A stretch of 64,000 nt of DNA. It comes from Neisseria subflava (GTDB lineage Bacteria; Pseudomonadota; Gammaproteobacteria; Burkholderiales; Neisseriaceae). The stretch is from contig NZ_CP073117.1 of NCBI RefSeq assembly GCF_024205745.1, forward strand, positions 1,364,001 through 1,428,000. The letters run 5' to 3'. This document shows positions 7,310 to 17,195 of the stretch, piece after piece. The notes under the pieces are model-generated. The model was given only the letters and a program-made list of their open reading frames with translations, had not been told where the DNA came from and made no database searches. Made by a program: the position numbers and the translations under genes. Every line of letters begins with the position of its first letter. The first letter of the stretch is position 1.

Positions 7310-8476
7310 ATGAATTTACACGAGTATCAGGCTAAAGAACTGCTGGCTAGCTACGGTTTGCCCGTACAAGGCGGTATTTTGGCACACAACGGCGAAGAAG
7401 CCGCTGCAGCTTACGACAAATTGGGCGGCAAATTCGCTGTTGTCAAAGCACAAGTACACGCCGGCGGCCGCGGTAAAGCGGGCGGCGTAAAAGTCGTTAA
7501 AAGCCGCGAAGAAGCTAAAGAAGTGGCTGAAAGCCTGATTGGCACCAACTTGGTAACTTACCAAACCGATGCCAACGGCCAACCTGTCAACAGCGTTTTG
7601 GTTTGCGAAGACATGTATCCTGTTCAAACCGAGCTGTACTTGGGCGCAGTGGTTGACCGTTCTACCCGCCGCGTTACATTCATGGCTTCTACCGAAGGTG
7701 GCGTGGAAATCGAAAAAGTTGCTGCCGAAACTCCAGAAAAAATCTTCAAAGTAACCGTTGATCCGCTGGTCGGCCTGCAACCTTGCCAAGCTCGTGAAGT
7801 TGCCTTCCAACTGGGCTTGAAAGACAAACAAATCAACGAGTTCGTCAAACTGATGACCGGCGCGTACAAAGCGTTTATCGAAAACGACTTCGCCCTGTTT
7901 GAAGTAAACCCATTGGCAGTCCGTGAAAACGGCGACTTGGCCTGTGTGGACGGCAAAATCGGTATCGACAGCAACGCGCTCTACCGTCTGCCGAAAATTG
8001 CCGCTTTGCGCGACAAATCTCAAGAAAACGAACGTGAGCTGAAAGCTTCCGAATTCGACCTGAACTATGTTGCCCTGGAAGGTAACATCGGCTGTATGGT
8101 GAACGGTGCCGGTTTGGCGATGGCCACTATGGACATCATCAAACTGAAAGGTGGCCAACCTGCCAACTTCTTGGACGTTGGCGGCGGCGCAACCAAAGAC
8201 CGCGTGGTTGAAGCGTTCAAACTGATTTTGGAAGACAAATCCGTTAAAGGCGTATTGATCAACATCTTCGGCGGTATCGTACGTTGCGACATGATTGCGG
8301 AAGCCATCGTGGCAGCCGTTAAAGAAATCAACGTCAACGTTCCTGTCGTTGTTCGTTTGGAAGGTAACAACGCCGAACTCGGCGCGAAAATCCTGAACGA
8401 ATCAGGTCTGAAACTGACTTCTGCAGACGGCCTGAATGACGCAGCCGAAAAAATTGTTGCAGCCGTAAACGCCTAA
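7310..8476 (+). CDS. sucC: succinyl-CoA synthetase beta subunit
   Basis: SucC with SucD converts succinyl-CoA to succinate with nucleotide triphosphate formation. The protein has an N-terminal ATP-grasp domain beginning [19 protein letters not shown], the glycine-rich [11 protein letters not shown] stretch, and the C-terminal ligase motifs LDVGGGA and [11 protein letters not shown]. The ATG at 7310 is preceded by AAGGAG at 7298-7303, which decides this start over an in-frame ATG at 7256. This gives 388 residues, the usual length. The sucC stop is 10 bases before sucD, so the two subunits are translated as a pair. Confidence 0.97.
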
Positions 8477-8486
8477 GGAGAAAAGA

Positions 8487-9377
8487 ATGAGCGTATTGAT
8501 TAATAAAGACACCAAAGTATTGGTTCAAGGTTTCACCGGTAAAAACGGTACTTTCCACTCCGAACAAGCTCTGGCTTACGGCACTAAAGTTGTTGGCGGC
8601 GTTACCCCAGGCAAAGGCGGTCAAACCCACCTGAACCTGCCCGTGTTCAACACCATGAAAGAAGCCGTTAAAGAAACCGGCGCGGACGCATCTGTAATTT
8701 ACGTTCCAGCTCCGTTTGTTTTGGACTCAATCGTTGAAGCCGTTGATTCAGGCGTAGGCTTGGTCGTTGTGATTACCGAAGGCGTACCAACTCTGGACAT
8801 GCTCAAAGCCAAACGTTACTTGGAAACCAACGGCAACGGTACCCGCTTAGTCGGCCCTAACTGCCCGGGCGTGATTACTCCGGGTGAGTGCAAAATCGGT
8901 ATTATGCCGGGCCACATCCACACTCCAGGCCGCATCGGTATTATTTCCCGTTCCGGTACATTGACTTACGAAGCTGTGGCACAAACCACCAAACTGGGCT
9001 TGGGTCAATCAACCTGTATCGGTATCGGCGGCGACCCGATTCCTGGTATGAACCAAATCGACGCACTGAAACTCTTCCAAGAAGACCCGGATACCGACGC
9101 CATCATCATGATCGGTGAAATCGGCGGTACTGCGGAAGAAGAAGCAGCCGAATACATCCAATCCAACGTAACCAAACCTGTTGTAGGTTACATTGCTGGT
9201 GTTACCGCTCCTAAAGGCAAACGTATGGGCCACGCCGGTGCGATTATTTCCGGCGGTAAAGGTACTGCCGAAGAAAAATTCGCCGCTTTCGAAAAAGCCG
9301 GTATCGCTTACACCCGCAGCCCTGCCGAGTTGGGCACTACCATGCTGGAAGTGTTGAAGGCAAAAGGTTTGGCATAA
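8487..9377 (+). CDS. sucD: succinyl-CoA synthetase alpha subunit
   Basis: SucD carries the CoA-binding Rossmann domain ([15 protein letters not shown] near the N-terminus) and the active-site histidine that is transiently phosphorylated ([10 protein letters not shown], about residue 246). Its 296 residues match the family. It follows sucC by 10 bases with an AAGGAGA ribosome site in the gap. It closes the TCA block; an inverted DUS terminator lies 25 bases downstream, separating it from the convergent accessory operon. Confidence 0.97.
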
Positions 9378-9401
9378 GACTTAAGTCTTTAGGCTGAATT
9401 G

Positions 9402-9433
9402 AAAAGGCCGTCTGAAGTTTTCAGACGGCCTTT
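9402..9433. terminator. bidirectional inverted DUS terminator
   Basis: An A-flanked AGGCCGTCTGAA and its complement with a short loop, followed by TTTAATTT, lies between the convergent sucD and the GIY-YIG nuclease gene. It can serve sucD directly; the nuclease gene ends about 110 bases further right. Confidence 0.65.
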
Positions 9434-9544
9434 AATTTAAGGGATAAATGGCAGATAAGAATACATTTTTGCAAATCAAACCAATGTTGGTAAGGACAGT
9501 ACCGAAAGGGCATATGGATAGAATCCCCTAATTGTTAAACTGTT

Positions 9545-10783
9545 TTACTTCATCAGTTTTTGAACGATTTTCCCAGTTGTGTTGTCCATTCGGTATTGGT
9601 TAATTGTACCGTTGACAATATATTCAGCGGCTTTTTCAATGACATCTAATCCGACATCAAACCATTCATTTGGGATGTAACTTTTCCCGTCTTTCCCTAT
9701 TAAACGGATATTCAGTTTTTGTGCAGCAAAGAAGGCGTGCAATAAACGCTCGAACGTATGCGGATTGATATTGCGACATTCAAAAGACAATACAGGGACA
9801 ACTTTGCTTTCCAAGAAAGCAGTATCGCTTTCCGCATTAGCGATTCTGTTTTCCACCGTATCCGTCGTGAAGCCTATTTTATAGAGATTTTTATAGGCGG
9901 CAAGCTGCGGTTTGGGTTGAAGCAGTTTGACGATATAAAGGTGTCCAGTTACCAAATCCGGCTGATTATGGGCGGTCAAAATATCCGGCAGGGCTTCAGT
10001 ATCGGCCAGCATGACTTTTTTACCGTTTTCATCTTTATATACAGCGCGGGCGAGCGAGCGGGTCAGGATGTTGGATTCCGTCCCGTTTTCATAAATAACG
10101 CGCAGCCGTCTGTTTCCTCTTGTACTTTTCCTATCTTCCGTCTCCGCAAAATCAGCGACGTAACACAAGGCCCCGTGTAATAGGAACACATCGCCCGGCT
10201 GAAGAAAGGTTTCAGTTTTGAGGCGTTCAAAATGGGCTTTACCGTGTTTGAGCATGTGGTGGATTTGTTTGAACCAAGCTTCAAACCGCCAAAAGTCCGT
10301 ACAGGGTTGCCGTACCGCATTGTCTTCGTCCGTATAGGGAGCCCCATTTATCGTCCGCTGTTGGATGTGTTCTATCCTGAAAATATCCGTATTGCCCACG
10401 TCGAGCAGGTTTAAATCGTCATTGTTGAAGATGTCTTCCAGCGTAACCACATTTTCAGCTTTGCAGCATTCCGTTTTTTCAGACGGCCTTAGCAGATTGA
10501 GCGTATCGTATTGTCGAAGGGTTTCACAATGCTGTTTGTTGTTCAGCAAGGCTTGCCATTTCCTATCTAAAATTTTTTCATCCAAATTACCGTCTTTATT
10601 CGGTAAACGTCCATGCCGTCTGAAAAACGATTCGACTTCGCCGAATGTTTGTAAAACCATTGCGTCGGCATCGGCTTTGGCGGTAATCGGTTTGACATCG
10701 GCAAGCAGACCTAAATCGTCATGATTGAAAATATCGTCCAAGCTGGTGATTTTAGAATCAACGCGCATACCTTTTAGCAACAT
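9545..10783 (-). CDS. GIY-YIG (T5orf172/Mug113-type) nuclease of defence operon
   Basis: A 412-residue protein whose C-terminal third is a GIY-YIG nuclease of the T5orf172/Mug113 type. HLYIVK (281-286) and YKIGFT (301-306) are the GIY and YIG strands, Arg313 follows, Glu345 (FERLLH) is the likely metal ligand, and PNEWF (371-375) closes the fold. The N-terminal half is unfamiliar. It has a 20-residue element at 11-30 repeated at 111-130 (core LDDIFNHDDL / LEDIFNNDDL). Residues 50-83 resemble the last 40 residues of the helicase encoded just upstream. Its start lies only 2 bases after the helicase stop, so the pair is probably translationally coupled. It would be the nucleolytic arm of the operon; that role is inferred. 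Confidence 0.85.
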   Translation of the reverse strand: MLLKGMRVDSKITSLDDIFNHDDLGLLADVKPITAKADADAMVLQTFGEVESFFRRHGRLPNKDGNLDEKILDRKWQALLNNKQHCETLRQYDTLNLLRPSEKTECCKAENVVTLEDIFNNDDLNLLDVGNTDIFRIEHIQQRTINGAPYTDEDNAVRQPCTDFWRFEAWFKQIHHMLKHGKAHFERLKTETFLQPGDVFLLHGALCYVADFAETEDRKSTRGNRRLRVIYENGTESNILTRSLARAVYKDENGKKVMLADTEALPDILTAHNQPDLVTGHLYIVKLLQPKPQLAAYKNLYKIGFTTDTVENRIANAESDTAFLESKVVPVLSFECRNINPHTFERLLHAFFAAQKLNIRLIGKDGKSYIPNEWFDVGLDVIEKAAEYIVNGTINQYRMDNTTGKIVQKLMK

Positions 10784-10785
10784 AT

Positions 10786-12924
10786 TCAGCCCCTTGCCAT
10801 GCGTTCCGCTTTTTTGTTGCGGATATAGATTAAGGCCTCGCCCATGCGTTTTTCCAAGGGGTCGTCTGAATCTTTGTCAGGCATCCGATTGTTGGTGCGG
10901 ACAAATTCATTGATACGCGGCCACAGCATAGCGGCCTCATCTTCCGTCATTTGGATACGGTCTGCCTGCACATAATCCTGAATCGCTTTCAACAGCGGCG
11001 CGTCCACATTTTTGGACAAGACTTCATATGCGTCCCTGAAAGGATTGACTTCGCGGATTAAATCCACATTCAACCTATCTACATTGATAAATTTTTCGCC
11101 GACTTTGATAAAACGGTTGTCAGCGGTTTTGACTTCGCCTGTTTGCAGATTTTTGATTTTCGCGTTGTCAGGCAAATCTCGTTCCCTGACAGTTTCTTCA
11201 ACAGAATAACTCTGCCCGGCTTCTTGCAACTTAACCGTATCGACAAAAAAATCTCCTTGTCTGATATAGGTTTTTTCGCCTTCGATAAGCGCGTTATCGG
11301 GCAAATCCTTGCCGTCTTTGATACCGCCGCCCTGGGTTACCGCCATTTTAGTCAGCGTCCCTTGCACAATTTGGTCTTGCTCTTCTACCGACAGCTCGGG
11401 ATAACGGCAGGCAACAATCTTCGGCAGCGCGGTTTCATTGATGGCAGAAGCAGGCGTGTCTTCCTGAATATAGCGTTTGGCATTTTGCGTATCCTGTACC
11501 AACGCAGCGATAAGGTCGTCTGAATCCTTATTCAGAATATCGACGACTTTTTTAGAGGCGGGCAGCGTCGTATCGTCGATAATCACATCGCCCGGATTGG
11601 GCTGTTCATCCGGCCTCATATCAGAGCGGCGGCGGAAAGTGATATTGGGCGCCAACACCTGCTCCATCAGCAGCGACAGCGTAATCGCCTTCAAAAGATT
11701 ATTAACCGACACTTTGACATCTTCATCTGCCGCATCAGGCTGCGCAATCAGATTGGTAAATTGAGCATGGGTTTTCCCCTCGCAATCTCGAGTGGCGCGA
11801 CCGATGATTTGGACGACTTCCGTCATCGAGCTGCGGTAGCCTATGGTCAGTACATGCTCACAATAGGGCCAGTCGAACCCCTCCTTCGCCATACCCAGCG
11901 CAACAATAATATCCATATCGTCGCGCGATTTGATATTGCGTAAATATGCCTGAATTAAAGAACGGTCGGATGTTTTACGGTCGTCCACCAAATCCGCCAG
12001 TTTCAGCAGCCTGCCGTCATGGGCTTTGACCGTGATGATGCCTGTTTCGCGGTCTTTTTCCACAAATTCGCCCAAGGTGTCGATGATATGGTCGACTGCC
12101 GAATACTTATCGACCGCCGCTTCGCCCGAATTGACGTTGGGAATATGGATAATCGTCTTTTTCGACGGATCGAGCACTTCACCCAAAGCATCGAGATAGC
12201 GGCCTTGGTAGAAATGGTAGCCCAATCCCAGAGATTTCAAATATCGGTAGCCGTTGAGTTGTTCGTAGTAGGTGTAGGTTACTTTTTCAAACTTGGCTTC
12301 GTCTTCTTCACTCAAAATCGGTACGGCGTCGCCTCGGAAGTACGAGCCGGTCATGGCGATAATATGAGCCGAGGAGTTGCGCATGATTTCGTCCAAGACT
12401 GCGCCCAAACGGTTGTTTTCTTCCGCAGAAACATGATGGAACTCGTCAATCGCCACCAGCGTGTCATTAAATGCCCCGACATCTGCGAGTTTGTCGAAAG
12501 CAAAGCGGAACGTCGCATGGGTGCAGACCAAAACTTGGTCATTGCCGCGCATAAAGCGGATAAAGGCATCCACTTTGCCTTGGTCTTTGTCGTCGCCGCT
12601 GCCGGTGCAGAGATTGTTTTCCGGCTTGACGCGCCAATCGGCAAAAAAGCCGTGTTTCGCCAATTCGGTATCGGCAAACGAGCCGCCGATGGACATTTCG
12701 GGTACGGCGATAATCGCCTTTTTGATGCCTTGATGGGCCAGCTTGTCCAAAGCCAAAAACATCAGCGCGCGGGATTTGCCTGAAGCGGGCGGCGCTTTGA
12801 GCAGCAGATATTGCGCGTCGCGCTTGGCAAACGCTTTGGCCTGCATTTCGCGCATGCCCATATTGTTTGGTTTGGTGCTGTTACCGGTTTGTCCGTATTC
12901 GACGTGGAGCAGGGGGATAGTCAA
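10786..12924 (-). CDS. DEAD/DEAH-box superfamily 2 helicase of defence operon
   Basis: A 712-residue SF2 helicase/translocase. Motifs in order are Walker A APPASGKS (44-51), DEFHH Walker B (160-164), MTGSY motif III (191-195), AKEGFDWP motif V (346-353) and QIIGRATRD motif VI (372-380). After the motor domains comes a region with two copies of a DLPDNA-beginning element (about 540-566 and 583-618). The C-terminal segment (671-705, core RMPDKD then EKRMGEAL) is echoed in the N-terminal half of the adjacent nuclease. Methyltransferase lies 46 bases upstream and nuclease 2 bases downstream, as in restriction systems where a helicase moves DNA for a separate nuclease. No nuclease motif is visible in it. 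Confidence 0.88.
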   Translation of the reverse strand: MTIPLLHVEYGQTGNSTKPNNMGMREMQAKAFAKRDAQYLLLKAPPASGKSRALMFLALDKLAHQGIKKAIIAVPEMSIGGSFADTELAKHGFFADWRVKPENNLCTGSGDDKDQGKVDAFIRFMRGNDQVLVCTHATFRFAFDKLADVGAFNDTLVAIDEFHHVSAEENNRLGAVLDEIMRNSSAHIIAMTGSYFRGDAVPILSEEDEAKFEKVTYTYYEQLNGYRYLKSLGLGYHFYQGRYLDALGEVLDPSKKTIIHIPNVNSGEAAVDKYSAVDHIIDTLGEFVEKDRETGIITVKAHDGRLLKLADLVDDRKTSDRSLIQAYLRNIKSRDDMDIIVALGMAKEGFDWPYCEHVLTIGYRSSMTEVVQIIGRATRDCEGKTHAQFTNLIAQPDAADEDVKVSVNNLLKAITLSLLMEQVLAPNITFRRRSDMRPDEQPNPGDVIIDDTTLPASKKVVDILNKDSDDLIAALVQDTQNAKRYIQEDTPASAINETALPKIVACRYPELSVEEQDQIVQGTLTKMAVTQGGGIKDGKDLPDNALIEGEKTYIRQGDFFVDTVKLQEAGQSYSVEETVRERDLPDNAKIKNLQTGEVKTADNRFIKVGEKFINVDRLNVDLIREVNPFRDAYEVLSKNVDAPLLKAIQDYVQADRIQMTEDEAAMLWPRINEFVRTNNRMPDKDSDDPLEKRMGEALIYIRNKKAERMARG

Positions 12925-12970
12925 GATATTTTCCTTTTAAAGACGGTGATGTCGGGGCAAAGATGCCGTT

Positions 12971-15730
12971 TTACGGCGTTTTTTGGCCGTTGACGGCTTT
13001 TTCGTATAAATCAAACAAAAATTCTACGCGCTCCATGCCGTCTGAAAAGGGTTTGGTGCGGTAGAGGCGGTCAACGGCGGTATCGAGGCGGAGATGGGCT
13101 TCTTTGAGCGGCAGCGGCATTTTATCGGGATCGTAGAGTTGCGCGAGGGTTTGGTCGGGGTAGTCGGCGCGGATAAGCAGGATGTCTTCAGCAAGCGCGG
13201 CTATGCGAGATTTTTCAGCTTCGTCGGCTTCGGGCCAAGGAAAATTGTTGTACACAATCGTGCCGGAATAGCGATAACGGCTTTCCAGACGGCCTGCGAC
13301 AGTGCGCATCCAGTCGTTGTGCATGGCAGAGGTAAGGATGCCGAATTCGTAGAGGGTGGCATTGGGGATCATCAGGTTGGCATTGTTACTGATGGTTCCA
13401 TCTATCAAAAAACCTAGAGGAATATAGTCCCGATTTTCAGATGAATGACAAGGAACGAGAATGTAGTTGCCGGAAGTAGGATGGCGGATTTCATCAAACA
13501 AATGGGGGATGTCTGCTTTTTGAACGGTTGCAGCTTTTTTGCTGGCAAGGCGGACAGCGCGTACTTTTTCTACCCTTTCGGCAACGAGGGGATGTTTTTC
13601 AGGCAGACTGTCGAGTTCTTCTTGGGTCAGGTCAGTCAGCCAGAGACACCAGCGTTGTTTGCCGTTGAGAAATTCGTCAGAGCCGAGCAGTTTTTTAATC
13701 CATTTGGCAGACTGCGGCTCACGGGCGATGAGGCTGTCTTTTTCTTCTGTGGTAAGGATGAGATTGCCGCCATCTCCAGGTTGGTTTCCTTTGTACATTT
13801 TTGAGACAGAGCAAATAGGATTCGAGCGTTTTTCAACAGAAAGATTGCTGCCTGCAATTAGATAGGGACTGATGTTGGCAACGCTTTGGCTGTGCCATTC
13901 TTTATCGAGAAGTTTGTAGAGCTTGGGCTGAGCGCTATTGGGGCTGAGGCCGTCTGAAAGATATGCTGCTTCCAGGCCGATGATGACAACGTGGACGGCG
14001 GCTTTGTCTTTGGCATTGTTTGCCCACGGGAAGGTCTGGTAGGCGAAGGCAATGCGGTTGCCCAATGCGAAGATAGGGGGCCAGAGGGTGGCAACTTGGT
14101 CGCCTTGGCTGATGGAATTGGTGGCGACAAGGGCGAGCCTGGCGCGGCTGGTGCGGATATATTGCGCGCCTTTCCAAAACCAACAGGCAACGTAATCCAA
14201 GACGCCGTATTTTTTCCAGCCGTCAAAAACCATATCCATATCTTCGTTTTGTTCCTCGTCGCGCGAATTTGAGCCGCCAAACGGGGGATTGCCGACGATA
14301 TAGACTTCGTCTTCAGCGCGGTTGTTGCGGTGGCAGAAGGCCTCCCAGTCTTCGCGCAGGCTGTTGGCGGCCTTGATGTTGCCGCCGCTTTTGAGAGGCA
14401 GGGTGGGCAGGCTGTTGCCCAGCTCGTTTTCGTGGGCAAGGTTCATTTGGTGTTCGGCCAGCCAAAGCGAAAGCATGGCGATTTCGTGGGCGAAGTCGTC
14501 CAGCTCGATGCCGTAAAATTGGTCGAGACGGATTTGGCTGCTGAAAATGGCGTTGCTGTCGATTTCTTTGACGGCTTTGAAGATTTCGATTTCGAGGCGG
14601 CGCAGCTCTTTGTAGGCGATAATCAGGAAATTGCCGCTGCCGCAGGCAGGGTCGAAGATTTTGATGTTGCCCAGCCGCATGGAGAGGCTGTATAGGGCTT
14701 TCAGACGGCCTTCATTGCTGGGATAGCGTTTGAAGATGTCTTGAAACGCCGTCTGAAGCTCGTCAAGAAAGAGCGGCTTGATGGCTTTCATGATATTGGG
14801 GACGGAGGTGTAGTGCTGTCCCAAACGGCTGCGCTGTTTCGGGTCTATCACGCTTTGAAACATGGAGCCGAAGATGTCGGGATTGATTTCAGACCAGTTG
14901 AGTTTGCCGCATTCGAGCAAAAGGCGGCGGGTGCGTGTATCGAAATCGGGGATGGGCTCGTCTGCCTGGAAAAGCCCGCCGTTGACGTAGGGGAAGCTTG
15001 CGAGATGGGCAGGCAGGGCTTCGGAACGTTTTTCAGGAGGCGTGTCGAGGGTTTGGAAAAGTGCGGTCAGGACTTCGTCTGTATTCTCGCCGGTTTTATG
15101 CGTATGGCTTTCAATGAGTTTGGTAAAGCTGTCTTTGGGGAAGATTTTGGTGTCTTCGGCAAAAAAACAGAAGAGCAGGCGGGTCAGGAAGACATTGAGG
15201 GCATGGATGTCTTCGGGTTTCTCGAGATGGTTGGTGCGGCGGATTTGGTCGAAAAGGCGCCCCATTTTTTCGGCGGCTTTGGTGTCGGCAGGATTTTCTT
15301 CAAATCCGCTGCTTTTTTCCAAGCCTGCGAGAGGAAGGAAAAAGCCGTAGTTTTGCGCTAAATCGGTATAGGCGCATTCGAGGTAGTCGTCGGCTTGGAT
15401 ATCGTAGGCGGCGATGTTTTGAAAATCGGTTACGATAAAGAAGCGGATTTTGTTTTTGTCGGCTGTGGCGGATTGTTTCAGGTCTTGCAGGACGTCGTAT
15501 ATGTCTGCATCGGGGGCGACAGGTTTGAAATAGAGTTTGCGGCTGAGGGCAATTTCGCCATGCAAGGGCATATCGGCGACGTTGGTGCCGGGGGTTTGGT
15601 TTTGCAGTTTGGTAATGGTGGCTTTCGGGGTATCGAACAGGCGTAGGAAGCCGTAGATGAAGTTTGCTTTGTCTTCCGACTGCACGAGCTTGGCCAGCCC
15701 GTCAAAAAGTTTGGTAGGATTGACTGCCAT
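12971..15730 (-). CDS. MmeI-like N6-adenine DNA methyltransferase, nuclease domain degenerate
   Basis: A 919-residue class I SAM-dependent DNA methyltransferase. Motif I is FDPACGSGNFL (359-369) and the catalytic motif IV is NPPF (481-484), marking an N6-adenine (gamma-class) enzyme. Overall order (N-terminal fold, helical spacer, methylase, target-recognition region near 620-830, C-terminal helices) and length match type IIL MmeI-like enzymes. MmeI carries a D-x9-E-x-K nuclease site near its N-terminus. Here the matching stretch reads Asp53-x9-Ser63-Arg-Lys65, so the key glutamate is missing and this domain is probably not a nuclease. The ATG at 15730 is preceded by AAAGGTG. First gene of the minus-strand operon. 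The domain mapping is from memory of the family. Confidence 0.88.
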   Translation of the reverse strand: MAVNPTKLFDGLAKLVQSEDKANFIYGFLRLFDTPKATITKLQNQTPGTNVADMPLHGEIALSRKLYFKPVAPDADIYDVLQDLKQSATADKNKIRFFIVTDFQNIAAYDIQADDYLECAYTDLAQNYGFFLPLAGLEKSSGFEENPADTKAAEKMGRLFDQIRRTNHLEKPEDIHALNVFLTRLLFCFFAEDTKIFPKDSFTKLIESHTHKTGENTDEVLTALFQTLDTPPEKRSEALPAHLASFPYVNGGLFQADEPIPDFDTRTRRLLLECGKLNWSEINPDIFGSMFQSVIDPKQRSRLGQHYTSVPNIMKAIKPLFLDELQTAFQDIFKRYPSNEGRLKALYSLSMRLGNIKIFDPACGSGNFLIIAYKELRRLEIEIFKAVKEIDSNAIFSSQIRLDQFYGIELDDFAHEIAMLSLWLAEHQMNLAHENELGNSLPTLPLKSGGNIKAANSLREDWEAFCHRNNRAEDEVYIVGNPPFGGSNSRDEEQNEDMDMVFDGWKKYGVLDYVACWFWKGAQYIRTSRARLALVATNSISQGDQVATLWPPIFALGNRIAFAYQTFPWANNAKDKAAVHVVIIGLEAAYLSDGLSPNSAQPKLYKLLDKEWHSQSVANISPYLIAGSNLSVEKRSNPICSVSKMYKGNQPGDGGNLILTTEEKDSLIAREPQSAKWIKKLLGSDEFLNGKQRWCLWLTDLTQEELDSLPEKHPLVAERVEKVRAVRLASKKAATVQKADIPHLFDEIRHPTSGNYILVPCHSSENRDYIPLGFLIDGTISNNANLMIPNATLYEFGILTSAMHNDWMRTVAGRLESRYRYSGTIVYNNFPWPEADEAEKSRIAALAEDILLIRADYPDQTLAQLYDPDKMPLPLKEAHLRLDTAVDRLYRTKPFSDGMERVEFLFDLYEKAVNGQKTP

Positions 15731-15769
15731 GGTTGCGACACCTTTGTTAAGAAATTGTAATGATATGAA

Positions 15770-15775
15770 ATTATA
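15770..15775 (-). promoter_or_regulatory. candidate -10 element of methyltransferase operon
   Basis: TATAAT on the minus strand, 40 bases upstream of the methyltransferase start, in an A/T-rich stretch. No good -35 hexamer is seen at 17 bases, so this is only a candidate. Confidence 0.35.
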
Positions 15776-15824
15776 TCTTTTTTTATCAAAAAAGAATATT
15801 GGAATAGGCTGTGTAAAAGGTATT

Positions 15825-15861
15825 AAAAAAGGCCGTCTGAAGTTTTCAGACGGCCTTTTTT
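15825..15861. repeat. inverted DUS pair between divergent genes
   Basis: AGGCCGTCTGAA and its complement, flanked by A6 and T6, form an ideal terminator-like hairpin. Yet it lies between the divergent methyltransferase operon and the DUF883 gene. It cannot end either transcript unless one promoter lies beyond it; its likely role is DNA uptake or insulation. Confidence 0.7.
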
Positions 15862-15994
15862 AAATTCCATTTAGTCATTTTCAGAATAAGCACTTAATTT
15901 AATTTAAATTAACGTTTATTTCGGAATAAACGGTTATAATTTATTAACAGATAAATAGTCTGTAACCATATCAACCTATATCAAGGAGAAAAGC

Positions 15995-16429
15995 ATGAAA
16001 AAACACGATTTTGAAGCACGTCGCGAGGCTTTGCTGAAAGACATCCGAGAAGTGATGGATGATGTGGAAGAGTTGTACCGCAATGGTGTTGAAGCCGGTT
16101 CGGAAGAGGGCAGCAAAGCCCGAGCCAAATTGGAAGAAAAATTGGCTGTGGCCAAAGAGCGTTTGAGCCGTTTTGAAGAAGAAGCCGGCGAGCGTCTGCG
16201 CCATCATGCCGAGCGTGCGCGTGAAAAATACGAGCAGTTTGAAGAGGCGGCTCAGGAGCGTTTGAAAGAAGGCAAAGAGCGTTTTGCCGAATTTGAAGCC
16301 GATGCAGGTGCGCGTTTGAAACGCGGTGCCAAACACGCTGATGAAGTGGTGCATGAAAAACCATATTATGCAATGGGTTTTGCCGCATTAGCCGGTTTGG
16401 TTGTCGGTGTGTTGTTGAACCGCCGTTAA
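15995..16429 (+). CDS. DUF883 (ElaB/YqjD-type) membrane-anchored protein
   Basis: A 144-residue, highly charged, mostly helical protein (repeated EE/RE/KE heptads at about 5-115, probable coiled coil). It ends in a single hydrophobic segment, YYAMGFAALAGLVVGVLLNRR. This is the architecture of the ElaB/YqjD/DUF883 family: inner-membrane tail-anchored proteins, some of which bind ribosomes in stationary phase in E. coli. The start follows an AAGGAG site. It heads a three-gene set with a YqjE-like and a YqjK-like protein, the same order as E. coli yqjD-yqjE-yqjK, which supports the assignment. Confidence 0.85.
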   Translation: MKKHDFEARREALLKDIREVMDDVEELYRNGVEAGSEEGSKARAKLEEKLAVAKERLSRFEEEAGERLRHHAERAREKYEQFEEAAQERLKEGKERFAEFEADAGARLKRGAKHADEVVHEKPYYAMGFAALAGLVVGVLLNRR

Positions 16430-16441
16430 TGCGAATATGTT

Positions 16442-16505
16442 AAGGCCGTCTGAACAGGCGTGCACATGAAATCATGGATTTCATTGCGCCGTGCAGACGG
16501 CCTTA
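16442..16505 (+). repeat. long imperfect DUS hairpin with nested stem
   Basis: TAAGGCCGTCTG and CAGACGGCCTTA bracket a region with an inner perfect stem (ATGAAATC / GATTTCAT). The inner right arm reads GCAGACGG rather than a true DUS. It lies between the DUF883 and YqjE-like genes and has no T-tract, so read-through is expected. Confidence 0.5.
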
Positions 16506-16540
16506 GCCTTATGTTTCCTGAGAAAAAAAGGATAGTTAAG

Positions 16541-16948
16541 ATGGGAATTCGCCAGCGTTTTGAACATGGCAAGGCTTTGTTGAATCAGGGCGCGGATTTG
16601 CTGCTGCTGCGCTTGCAGGTATTGAGCTTGGATTTGACGCGTCAGGCGGAAAATGTGTTCCGGTTGGCGATTTGGCTGGTATTGTCCGGCGCACTGTTGA
16701 TGGTGGGCTTGGTCGGTTTGCTGTTCGGATTGAACCGCGTGCTGACGGATGTTGCGGCTTTGTGGGTGTTTTTCGGCATTTTCTTCGTGAGTCTGCTGAT
16801 TATTACCGTATTGTTCCGCAAAGTATCGGCAGATTATCGGGAGCAGGGTAGTCGCGTGGCTGAGACCTTGCAGGATATTCGATCGGATATTGCGTATTTG
16901 CGCGGTGAGATAGACAAGGATGCGGACGATGAAGCAACAGGAGTATGA
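16541..16948 (+). CDS. phage holin family / YqjE-like membrane protein
   Basis: A 135-residue protein with two strong membrane segments at about residues 43-65 and 75-96, and charged amphipathic ends. Its context between DUF883 and YqjK-like genes fits the YqjE (phage_holin_3_6, PF07332) family. The holin name is historical; a lysis role is not implied. The start at 16541 is chosen because AAAAAAAGGATAG precedes it, whereas the longer frame from 16460 runs through the DUS hairpin. Its end overlaps the next gene, so the two are coupled. Confidence 0.8.
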   Translation: MGIRQRFEHGKALLNQGADLLLLRLQVLSLDLTRQAENVFRLAIWLVLSGALLMVGLVGLLFGLNRVLTDVAALWVFFGIFFVSLLIITVLFRKVSADYREQGSRVAETLQDIRSDIAYLRGEIDKDADDEATGV

Positions 16949-17195
16949 AGAAGCGCGCGAGTTGCTGCTTTTGGAAGCCAAGCTGGTGCGGTTGCGGATT
17001 GAAGCGGAAAATTTGAAACTGCGTAAAGCGGAAGAAAGCAAAACACGACAGGGCAATCAGTTGATTAAGCTCGCAGATGTGGCGTATCAGCTGAGCCAAA
17101 CGCGTTTGTTGTCTCAACGCTCTTTGTTCTCTACATCACGCCGTCGGCATTGGATTTGGCTGGTGTTGGCGGTCATACTGGGTTTGTCGAGATAA
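16929..17195 (+). CDS. YqjK-like small membrane protein
   Basis: An 88-residue protein: a charged helical N-terminal 60 residues (EEARELLLLEAKLVRLRIEA), then SRRRHWIWLVLAVILGLSR as a C-terminal membrane anchor. It overlaps the end of the YqjE-like gene by about 20 bases; an ATG at 16920 in the same frame is an alternative start. The position and anchor resemble YqjK, which follows yqjE in enterobacteria. The function is unknown. Confidence 0.7.
   Translation: MKQQEYEEARELLLLEAKLVRLRIEAENLKLRKAEESKTRQGNQLIKLADVAYQLSQTRLLSQRSLFSTSRRRHWIWLVLAVILGLSR

What the first reader, a model, noticed from the sequence alone, without database searches (positions are those of the whole stretch)
9545..15730. 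Three-gene defence-like operon with an MmeI-like methylase whose nuclease site is lost and a separate helicase plus GIY-YIG nuclease
Seen: methyltransferase, SF2 helicase and GIY-YIG nuclease genes lie on one strand with gaps of 46 and 2 bases. The methylase has the length and order of type IIL MmeI-like enzymes, but the expected D-x9-E-x-K reads Asp53-x9-Ser63-Arg-Lys65. Known: MmeI cuts and methylates in one chain and needs no helicase. Inference: cleavage has moved to the GIY-YIG partner, driven by the helicase, making a hybrid between type IIL and type I/III restriction, or a modification-guided defence unlike BREX and DISARM. I know of no named system with this exact trio.
Basis: partly seen in the sequence, partly recalled or inferred. 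Interest (0 to 1): 0.8.

Follow-up and report, generated by a model that had tools for sequence, protein, structure and literature searches.

The report
Split MmeI-like restriction-modification cassette in Neisseria
Three neighbouring genes in a Neisseria-type genome form a DNA-marking, DNA-moving and probably DNA-cutting defence cassette of a kind already described in other bacteria; what is useful here is evidence that the marking enzyme's target-reading part is swapped while its motor and cutter are kept intact.

Summary
Window 9545-15730 (minus strand) encodes an MmeI-like methyltransferase without the D-x9-E-x-K nuclease triad, an SF2 helicase and a GIY-YIG nuclease, with gaps of 46 and 2 nt. 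The claim 'no named system' is wrong. Blow et al. 2016 describe exactly this trio as OspHL35III, with several hundred members in REBASE; it is also dnmA-yeeB-yeeC of Bacillus subtilis. So this is a new member of a known kind. I add: 0 of 37 methyltransferases with a partner in view keep the triad, against 48 of 53 without; trio methyltransferases from several phyla form one clade; the cassette lies between two copies of an uptake-sequence hairpin that is single in empty relatives; a sister genome has the same cassette with an exchanged recognition domain, while helicase and nuclease are under purifying selection; two other lineages show apparent phase switches in the methyltransferase gene. 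Best reading: a Type I/ISP-like restriction system. Cleavage is not shown.

The parts
12971..15730 (-). MmeI-like N6-adenine methyltransferase/target-recognition protein (DnmA-like), 919 aa, nuclease triad lost
   Evidence: Pfam MmeI_N, MmeI_hel, MmeI_Mtase, MmeI_TRD, MmeI_C all above cut-off; PADLOC REase_MTase_IIG 1025 bits; DPACGSGNF and NPPF motifs
15518..15556 (-). stretch aligned to the MmeI D-x9-E-x-K triad: here E59, K69, V71
   Evidence: alignment columns; MmeI itself aligned with a solo relative
13229..13855 (-). target-recognition domain (residues 626-834); residues 626-790 are exchanged relative to sister genome G024
   Evidence: (PF20466, 627-834)
10786..12924 (-). SF2 helicase/translocase (YeeB-like), 712 aa, TTG start
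   Evidence: Walker A, DEFH, TGSY and QIIGR motifs invariant in 7 aligned homologues
10801..10938 (-). helicase C-terminal module (residues 663-708) that resembles a module in the nuclease N-terminus
   Evidence: hhalign probability 95.2, E 2.8e-8 for the single comparison
9545..10783 (-). GIY-YIG nuclease (YeeC-like, T5orf172/MUG113), 412 aa
10526..10660 (-). nuclease N-terminal module (residues 42-86) matching the helicase C-terminus
9749..9937 (-). GIY-YIG catalytic stretch: Y283, G304, R313, E345 invariant in 27 aligned homologues
   Evidence: catalytic roles recalled from the GIY-YIG superfamily
15760..15789 (-). promoter-like site upstream of the methyltransferase (TTGATA-18-TATCAT)
   Evidence: consensus match only; fewer sites found (4) than in shuffles (mean 7.2)
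9402..9433 (.). left copy of the hairpin made of two inverted DNA-uptake sequences (terminator-like), left border of the insert
15827..15858 (.). right copy of the same hairpin, right border of the insert; empty relatives G035, G036, G037 have one copy

Best explanation
A member of the OspHL35III / DnmA-YeeB-YeeC kind of split, Type IIG-like restriction-modification system, acquired as a cassette. The methyltransferase reads an asymmetric short site through its recognition domain and methylates one adenine to mark self DNA. At an unmodified site it serves as the platform for the helicase, which translocates along the DNA and brings or activates the GIY-YIG nuclease to break it, most likely (as in Type ISP enzymes) after two complexes on oppositely oriented sites converge. 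Shown: gene content, lost triad, intact helicase and GIY-YIG motifs, purifying selection, exchange of the recognition domain, insertion borders. Inferred: methylation, complex formation, translocation, cleavage, the two-site rule.
For: Same trio described as OspHL35III and dnmA-yeeB-yeeC. Triad lost in 37 of 37 methyltransferases with a partner in view, kept in 48 of 53 without; one clade. Helicase motif residues invariant in 7 rows and GIY-YIG ones in 27 rows. dN/dS 0.039 for the helicase and 0.086 for the nuclease against sister G024. Recognition domain 65% identical to G024 while the other methyltransferase parts are 92-100% apart from one loop at 78%: specificity changes while motor and nuclease stay, as expected if both follow the methyltransferase. 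The methyltransferase gene is interrupted or lost while helicase and nuclease frames stay open in three L. salivarius plasmids, G038 and G047, and B. subtilis without dnmA has no growth defect: the nuclease seems harmless without the methyltransferase. One-strand marking needs some two-site rule (argued for MmeI, and described for Type ISP enzymes, in passages of PMC3874165). Per PMC9973331, deleting the V. crassostreae homologues of dnmA and yeeB raised sensitivity to some phages.
Against: In B. subtilis plasmid uptake did not change without dnmA and three tested phages were not affected by deletions of dnmA, yeeB or yeeC. No methylation, cleavage or phage test exists for this Neisseria locus in what I saw. 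Only 3 of 45 species genomes of the genus, the window's own included, hold the nuclease. In some relatives the partners are broken or split: helicase and nuclease in L033, nuclease in L027, L036, L037, L048 and L066 come in two frames. In G047 helicase and nuclease keep low dN/dS (0.069 and 0.095 against the window) although its methyltransferase is cut down, which may mean a recent loss or a function without it. The structure predictions did not finish. The translocation-collision step rests on analogy alone.
Confidence: 0.72

Rival explanations
1. A restriction relic: only the methyltransferase still acts, as an orphan that affects gene expression, as proposed for DnmA in B. subtilis.
For: PMC7261158 and PMC9973331 report no restriction and effects on promoters (passages); some plasmids hold remnants of the trio (rows with 13-18% coverage, two inspected); split partner frames in some relatives.
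Against: Intact frames and motifs in the window; dN/dS 0.039 and 0.086 for helicase and nuclease; the recognition domain has been exchanged between sister genomes, which a regulator with fixed target sites would not be expected to tolerate.
Confidence: 0.15
2. A BREX-like or abortive system: methylation marks self, and the helicase and GIY-YIG protein stop phage replication or kill the cell without cutting at or between sites.
For: Weak similarity of the methyltransferase to PglX and DrmMI; no cleavage shown for any member in the passages I read; PMC9973331 notes that the DnmA motif is not avoided by phages and that any action must differ from canonical RM.
Against: No room in the insert for PglZ, BrxC or DISARM core genes: it holds three genes; the best PADLOC model is Type IIG; GIY-YIG catalytic residues are invariant in 27 rows.
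Confidence: 0.1
3. A system of no described kind, a new hybrid of Type IIL and Type I/III.
Against: Exact trio in print since 2016 as OspHL35III and, second-hand, noted in 2009.
Confidence: 0.02

Closest known systems
OspHL35III-type split Type IIG-like RM system (Blow et al. 2016, PMC4752239; a results section and the legend of S4 Fig seen as passages)
   Same: MmeI-like methyltransferase/TRD lacking the nuclease motif, separate translocase, separate GIY-YIG endonuclease
   Different: Another host; no sequence of OspHL35III was compared here
dnmA-yeeB-yeeC of Bacillus subtilis (PMC9973331, PMC7261158; passages)
   Same: Same three families in the same order downstream of the methyltransferase; MmeI homologue without the endonuclease motif
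   Different: B. subtilis copy shows no restriction; PMC9973331 says its YeeB and YeeC miss stretches of the C-terminal domain relative to V. crassostreae; its site is GACGAG, whereas the recognition residues here predict a site ending in C. No B. subtilis sequence was aligned here (the B. subtilis control genome does match PF20466)
Type IIL enzymes MmeI / NmeAIII
   Same: Five-domain architecture; solved structure 5hr4 aligns over residues 78-912
   Different: MmeI keeps D-x9-E-x-K and cuts in one chain; here the triad is gone and two partners are added. NmeAIII is named from PMC3874165 and was not compared
AchA6III-type (PMC4752239)
   Same: MmeI-like methyltransferase without nuclease motif plus a helicase partner; locus L011 here looks like one
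   Different: Partner is one PLD-SNF2 chain, not a helicase plus GIY-YIG pair
Type ISP enzymes (PMC3874165, passages; the names LlaGI and LlaBIII from its reference list)
   Same: One recognition domain for an asymmetric site, methyltransferase, translocase and nuclease
   Different: Single chain with an Mrr-like nuclease; here three chains and GIY-YIG

Membership tests
OspHL35III / DnmA-YeeB-YeeC | MmeI-like methyltransferase with TRD | tested here: met
   five MmeI Pfam domains
OspHL35III / DnmA-YeeB-YeeC | N-terminal PD-ExK motif absent | tested here: met
   E59/K69/V71 in the triad columns
OspHL35III / DnmA-YeeB-YeeC | separate translocase gene | tested here: met
OspHL35III / DnmA-YeeB-YeeC | separate GIY-YIG endonuclease gene | tested here: met
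OspHL35III / DnmA-YeeB-YeeC | methyltransferase clusters with other trio methyltransferases | tested here: met
   99% SH-aLRT branch around 40 rows, 37 of them with a partner in view (quick method); neither B. subtilis DnmA nor OspHL35III was in the tree
OspHL35III / DnmA-YeeB-YeeC | methylates an asymmetric site and restricts unmodified DNA | not testable with these tools
   needs methylome and restriction assay
Type IIL (MmeI) | nuclease triad in the same chain | tested here: not met
Type IIL (MmeI) | self-sufficient, no helicase partner | tested here: not met
   helicase and nuclease adjacent in the same orientation
Type ISP | nuclease, translocase, methyltransferase and TRD in one chain | tested here: not met
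   three chains
Type ISP | two head-to-head sites needed for cleavage | not testable with these tools
   biochemical test needed
BREX | PglZ and BrxC/PglY next to the methyltransferase | tested here: not met
   the insert between the hairpin copies has room for only the three genes; only these three proteins were scanned with PADLOC, not the rest of the window
DISARM | DrmA, DrmB, DrmC next to the methyltransferase | tested here: not met
   same insert and same limits; DrmMI models score 106 bits or less against 1025 for Type IIG

The most novel reading that the evidence does not exclude
The methyltransferase is the single switchboard of the system. Its dead nuclease domain has become a docking platform, so that exchange of the recognition domain, or phase switches in the methyltransferase gene (a G11 tract in Neisseria genome G038, a 284-bp invertible segment in L. 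salivarius), re-aims or turns off the whole system safely because helicase and GIY-YIG nuclease, tied together by a shared 46-residue module, are inert without it. Window and sister G024 would then restrict different sites with the same motor and cutter (predicted position 3: probably C in the window, G in G024; position 6: C in both).
Probability: 0.45. Interest if true: 0.6.

Novelty: new member of a known kind. Interest (0 to 1): 0.36.

Why it matters
This kind of system has several hundred members in REBASE (PMC4752239) and in my sample occurs in Pseudomonadota, Bacillota, Bacteroidota, Campylobacterota and smaller phyla. In the paper searches made (listings, and passages of some papers) I saw no demonstration of cleavage by a member, and the B. 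subtilis member looks inactive. A naturally swapped pair (window and G024) with near-identical motor and nuclease is a ready experiment for how recognition is coupled to cutting.

Tried and rejected
Rejected: chance ORFs (homologues over full length); BREX or DISARM membership (and gene content); carriage by the phages searched (no tblastn match for the nuclease in 50,697 phage records at E 1e-5); a phase-variable repeat in the window's own trio (no run of 7 or more G or C or 9 or more A or T; only weak short tandem repeats). Led nowhere: PDB sequence search with the helicase profile (no hit at 0.001) and the nuclease profile (only unrelated hits with E 0.21-0.34); structure prediction of the nuclease and the methyltransferase (two jobs accepted, unfinished, so no fold evidence is used); papers on the trio in Neisseria or on inversion in L. 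salivarius (listings showed none that I could see to be about them; the second listed 10 of 21).

Rows dropped before counts: of the 101 loci held, those whose methyltransferase frame was open at the 5' end (L027, L061, L095-L098, L100, L101) or that held no methyltransferase hit are not in the 90 rows; the tree also leaves out L088 and L099 and adds L104. Results against my reading: in 2 of 11 closely related pairs (helicase identity at least 0.92) the recognition domain was not the most variable methyltransferase segment, and the pairs share members and are not independent. The N-terminal domain is the least conserved part within the trio (mean pairwise identity 0.333 against 0.541 among enzymes without partners), so a docking role for it is only a guess. 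The tree is a quick one with long branches (L011, L012, L013) and rows of odd composition.
Full report
OBSERVATION. Window 9545-15730, minus strand, holds three open frames: 15730..12971 (919 aa), 12924..10786 (712 aa, TTG) and 10783..9545 (412 aa), with gaps of 46 and 2 nt. Pfam finds all five MmeI domains in the first, Helicase_C above and DEAD and ResIII just below their cut-offs in the second, and T5orf172 and MUG113 in the third. PADLOC's best model for the first is REase_MTase_IIG with 1025 bits; for the helicase and nuclease its best hits are weak (36 and 14 bits). Flanking genes are sucD (8487-9377) and a small conserved gene (15995-16429); the name sucD is my recognition of the sequence, not a tool result. 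The genome is one contig of 2.21 Mb; that it is Neisseria is my inference from the DNA uptake sequences and gene content.

THE NUCLEASE SITE. MmeI's triad is D-x9-E-x-K: its chain 5hr4 aligns with a relative that has no partners (L010), both showing the motif in register, whereas the window protein aligns to 5hr4 only from residue 78. I aligned 90 MmeI-like methyltransferases whose frame is not open at the 5' end: the window's, ten plasmid loci, most of the 80 species-genome loci, and one partial frame. Of 37 methyltransferases with a helicase or nuclease partner in view, 0 keep D, E and K; of 53 without, 48 do, and 33 of those 48 have at least 5 kb of downstream DNA held. The five exceptions: L020, L040 and L071 end 827, 37 and 1 nt before the contig end and fall inside the trio clade; L099 is a partial frame; L011 is of another kind (below). 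A chance D-x9-E-x-K in L037 lies outside the triad columns. In the tree of 89 rows (quick method, SH-aLRT only) the 37 partner-bearing rows and L020, L040, L071 form one branch of 40 with support 99; with the labels as given 4 changes are counted, which is one plus the three cut contigs. So loss of the triad and presence of the partners go with a single old split. The rows are related, so the table is not a set of independent events. Inside the genus both kinds exist: genome G005 has an MmeI-like enzyme with D-x9-E-x-K intact and no match to the nuclease or helicase of the window.

THE TRIO ELSEWHERE. Of 41 rows with methyltransferase and helicase in one locus (two of them the window's own) all have the same strand and order; the nuclease is seen downstream in 36, the other five being short or contig-end loci; the gap between the first two genes is at most 113 nt in 25 and 704-5088 nt in 16. 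In plasmids 172 of 225 records with a match to the nuclease cover at least 80% of it; in phage records there was no match. Within the genus the nuclease is in 3 of 45 species genomes, and in the family the helicase is in 4 of 82 at E 1e-60; both counts include the window's own genome.

HOW IT GOT THERE. In relatives G035, G036 and G037 the two flanking genes are adjacent, with a single hairpin of two inverted uptake sequences between them. In the window this hairpin is present twice, at 9402-9433 and 15827-15858, bracketing the trio. This fits uptake and homologous exchange at the hairpin; the direction (gain rather than loss) is inferred. G018 and G023 hold a TonB-type receptor gene at the same place (name by my reading of the sequence). 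G024 holds the trio at the same place, G038 elsewhere. Genome G047, of another genus, has the helicase at 98% and the nuclease at 89% identity but only the last 86 residues of the methyltransferase in the stretch searched.

IS IT ALIVE? Against G024, dN/dS is 0.039 for the helicase, 0.086 for the nuclease, 0.106 for the methyltransferase N-domain (few changes). Nucleotide identity is 86-99% in 150-nt windows from 8401 to 16950, except 57-81% in the four windows from 13351 to 13950, that is the recognition domain: 136 of 209 residues identical against 161 of 165 in the N-domain. A loop of the methyltransferase domain (461-510) is also changed (78%). Silent divergence in residues 626-790 is 1.5 per site, against 0.10-0.25 elsewhere in the gene apart from that loop (0.61), so this looks like an import by recombination rather than in-place change. 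In five Enterobacterales copies plus the window pair, the recognition domain is the most variable methyltransferase segment, or ties, in 9 of 11 pairs with helicase identity of at least 0.92. Against: in some relatives the partner genes are split or broken (L033, L027, L036, L037, L048, L066), and in G047 helicase and nuclease keep low dN/dS (0.069, 0.095) without a full methyltransferase.

WHAT IT MAY READ. By the contact rules of PMC4833311 (passages) MmeI residues E806 and R808 mean C at position 6, R810 with A774 means R at position 4, E751 and N773 mean C at position 3, and K or R751 with D773 mean G. The window has E816, R818, R820, A784, N783 at the matching places, but C761 where MmeI has E751; G024 has R761 and D783, and S784 for A784, with residues 791-834 unchanged. 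So I predict a site ending R-A-C in the window, and G at position 3 in G024. Position 3 of the window is unsure because C761 is outside the rule.

SWITCHES. In L. salivarius a 284-bp segment of the methyltransferase gene (L014:7471-7754) lies inverted in place in L121, L122 and L123, between 18-nt inverted arms with 83% complementarity; in those three the methyltransferase is annotated in pieces while helicase and nuclease frames are whole. In one search, 15 of 18 records show two places, which suggests the inverted form; one of these (H96) also runs from the record start, and only three were checked. A site-specific integrase gene is nearby in the three. In genome G038 the methyltransferase frame changes at an 11-base G tract within the N-domain region, a form of phase variation well known in Neisseria (recalled). 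The window and G024 trios have no such tract. In these cases, and in G047, the helicase and nuclease frames remain open without an intact methyltransferase frame, and B. subtilis lacking dnmA has no growth defect (PMC7261158). The simplest reading is that the nuclease needs the methyltransferase, as in Type I systems, whereas a free Type II endonuclease would kill the cell.

COUPLING. The helicase C-terminus (residues 663-708) and the nuclease N-terminus (42-86) share a module: hhalign probability 95.2, E 2.8e-8 for that single comparison of two 20-row profiles; the two window sequences alone give only E 0.002. I take it as a joint contact or DNA-binding element; this is a guess. In the nuclease Y283, G304, R313 and E345 are invariant in 27 rows.

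CARGO. Of the 16 rows with a long gap between methyltransferase and helicase I scanned inserted proteins of nine: eight, chosen because their sequences looked alike, are of the RhuM family (PF13310), and that of L019 is SIR2-like. PMC3710099 (passages) reports RhuM-like genes in loci with RM genes. L011 (Rhodococcus plasmid) pairs a methyltransferase without the triad with a PLD-SNF2 protein, which resembles the AchA6III kind of PMC4752239.

WHAT IS KNOWN. [quoted passage not shown] PMC7261158 and PMC9973331 (passages): DnmA is 38% identical to MmeI, lacks the motif, is followed by yeeB and yeeC; no restriction in B. subtilis; Morgan et al. 2009 is cited there for the Type I-like suggestion; a Vibrio crassostreae study cited there found more sensitivity to some phages after deletion. 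I did not read Morgan et al. or the Vibrio study.

MECHANISM. Methyltransferase marks and recognises; helicase moves; GIY-YIG cuts. Because an asymmetric site is marked on one strand only, newly replicated self DNA carries unmarked sites; a rule of two convergent unmarked sites, as argued for MmeI and described for Type ISP enzymes in PMC3874165 (passages), would spare self. This step is inference. Rivals are a relic or orphan (0.15) and a non-cutting BREX-like block (0.10).

VERDICT. Real, ordinary in kind, already in print; new member. The swapped recognition domain and the switches in relatives make it a useful test case. Interest 0.36.

Noticed in passing
L014:7471-7754; L121, L122, L123 (L. 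salivarius plasmids): A 284-bp segment inside the trio's methyltransferase gene is inverted in place between 18-nt inverted arms; helicase and nuclease frames stay whole. Looks like an on/off inversion switch; 15 of 18 records show two places, three checked.
   Followed up: partly
L103:14664-14674 (genome G038): An 11-base G tract in the N-domain region of the methyltransferase gene with a frame change at it; looks like a phase-variation tract.
   Followed up: partly
L126 (genome G047, another genus of the family): Helicase 98% and nuclease 89% identical to the window's, but only the last 86 residues of the methyltransferase are left in the stretch searched.
   Followed up: partly
L115 and L116 (genomes G018, G023): The same chromosomal site that holds the trio in the window holds a TonB-type receptor gene there, so the uptake-sequence hairpin behind sucD looks like an insertion hotspot.
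   Followed up: partly
L017, L021, L025, L028, L030, L032, L036, L048: RhuM-family gene inserted between methyltransferase and helicase in 8 of the 16 rows with a long gap; seven of the 16 were not scanned.
   Followed up: partly
L011:3357-9373: MmeI-like methyltransferase without the triad, overlapping an upstream PLD-SNF2 helicase gene (resembles the AchA6III kind).
   Followed up: partly
L104:7141-9981 and L105:9064-11476 (genomes G005, G019): MmeI-like Type IIL enzyme with intact triad near an alaS-like gene in G005; in G019 the corresponding gene is in overlapping broken frames.
   Followed up: no
L124, L125 (Serratia and Acinetobacter plasmids): C-terminal remnants annotated as Type IIL MmeI, in Serratia still followed by an annotated GIY-YIG gene: they look like decayed trios.
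   Followed up: no
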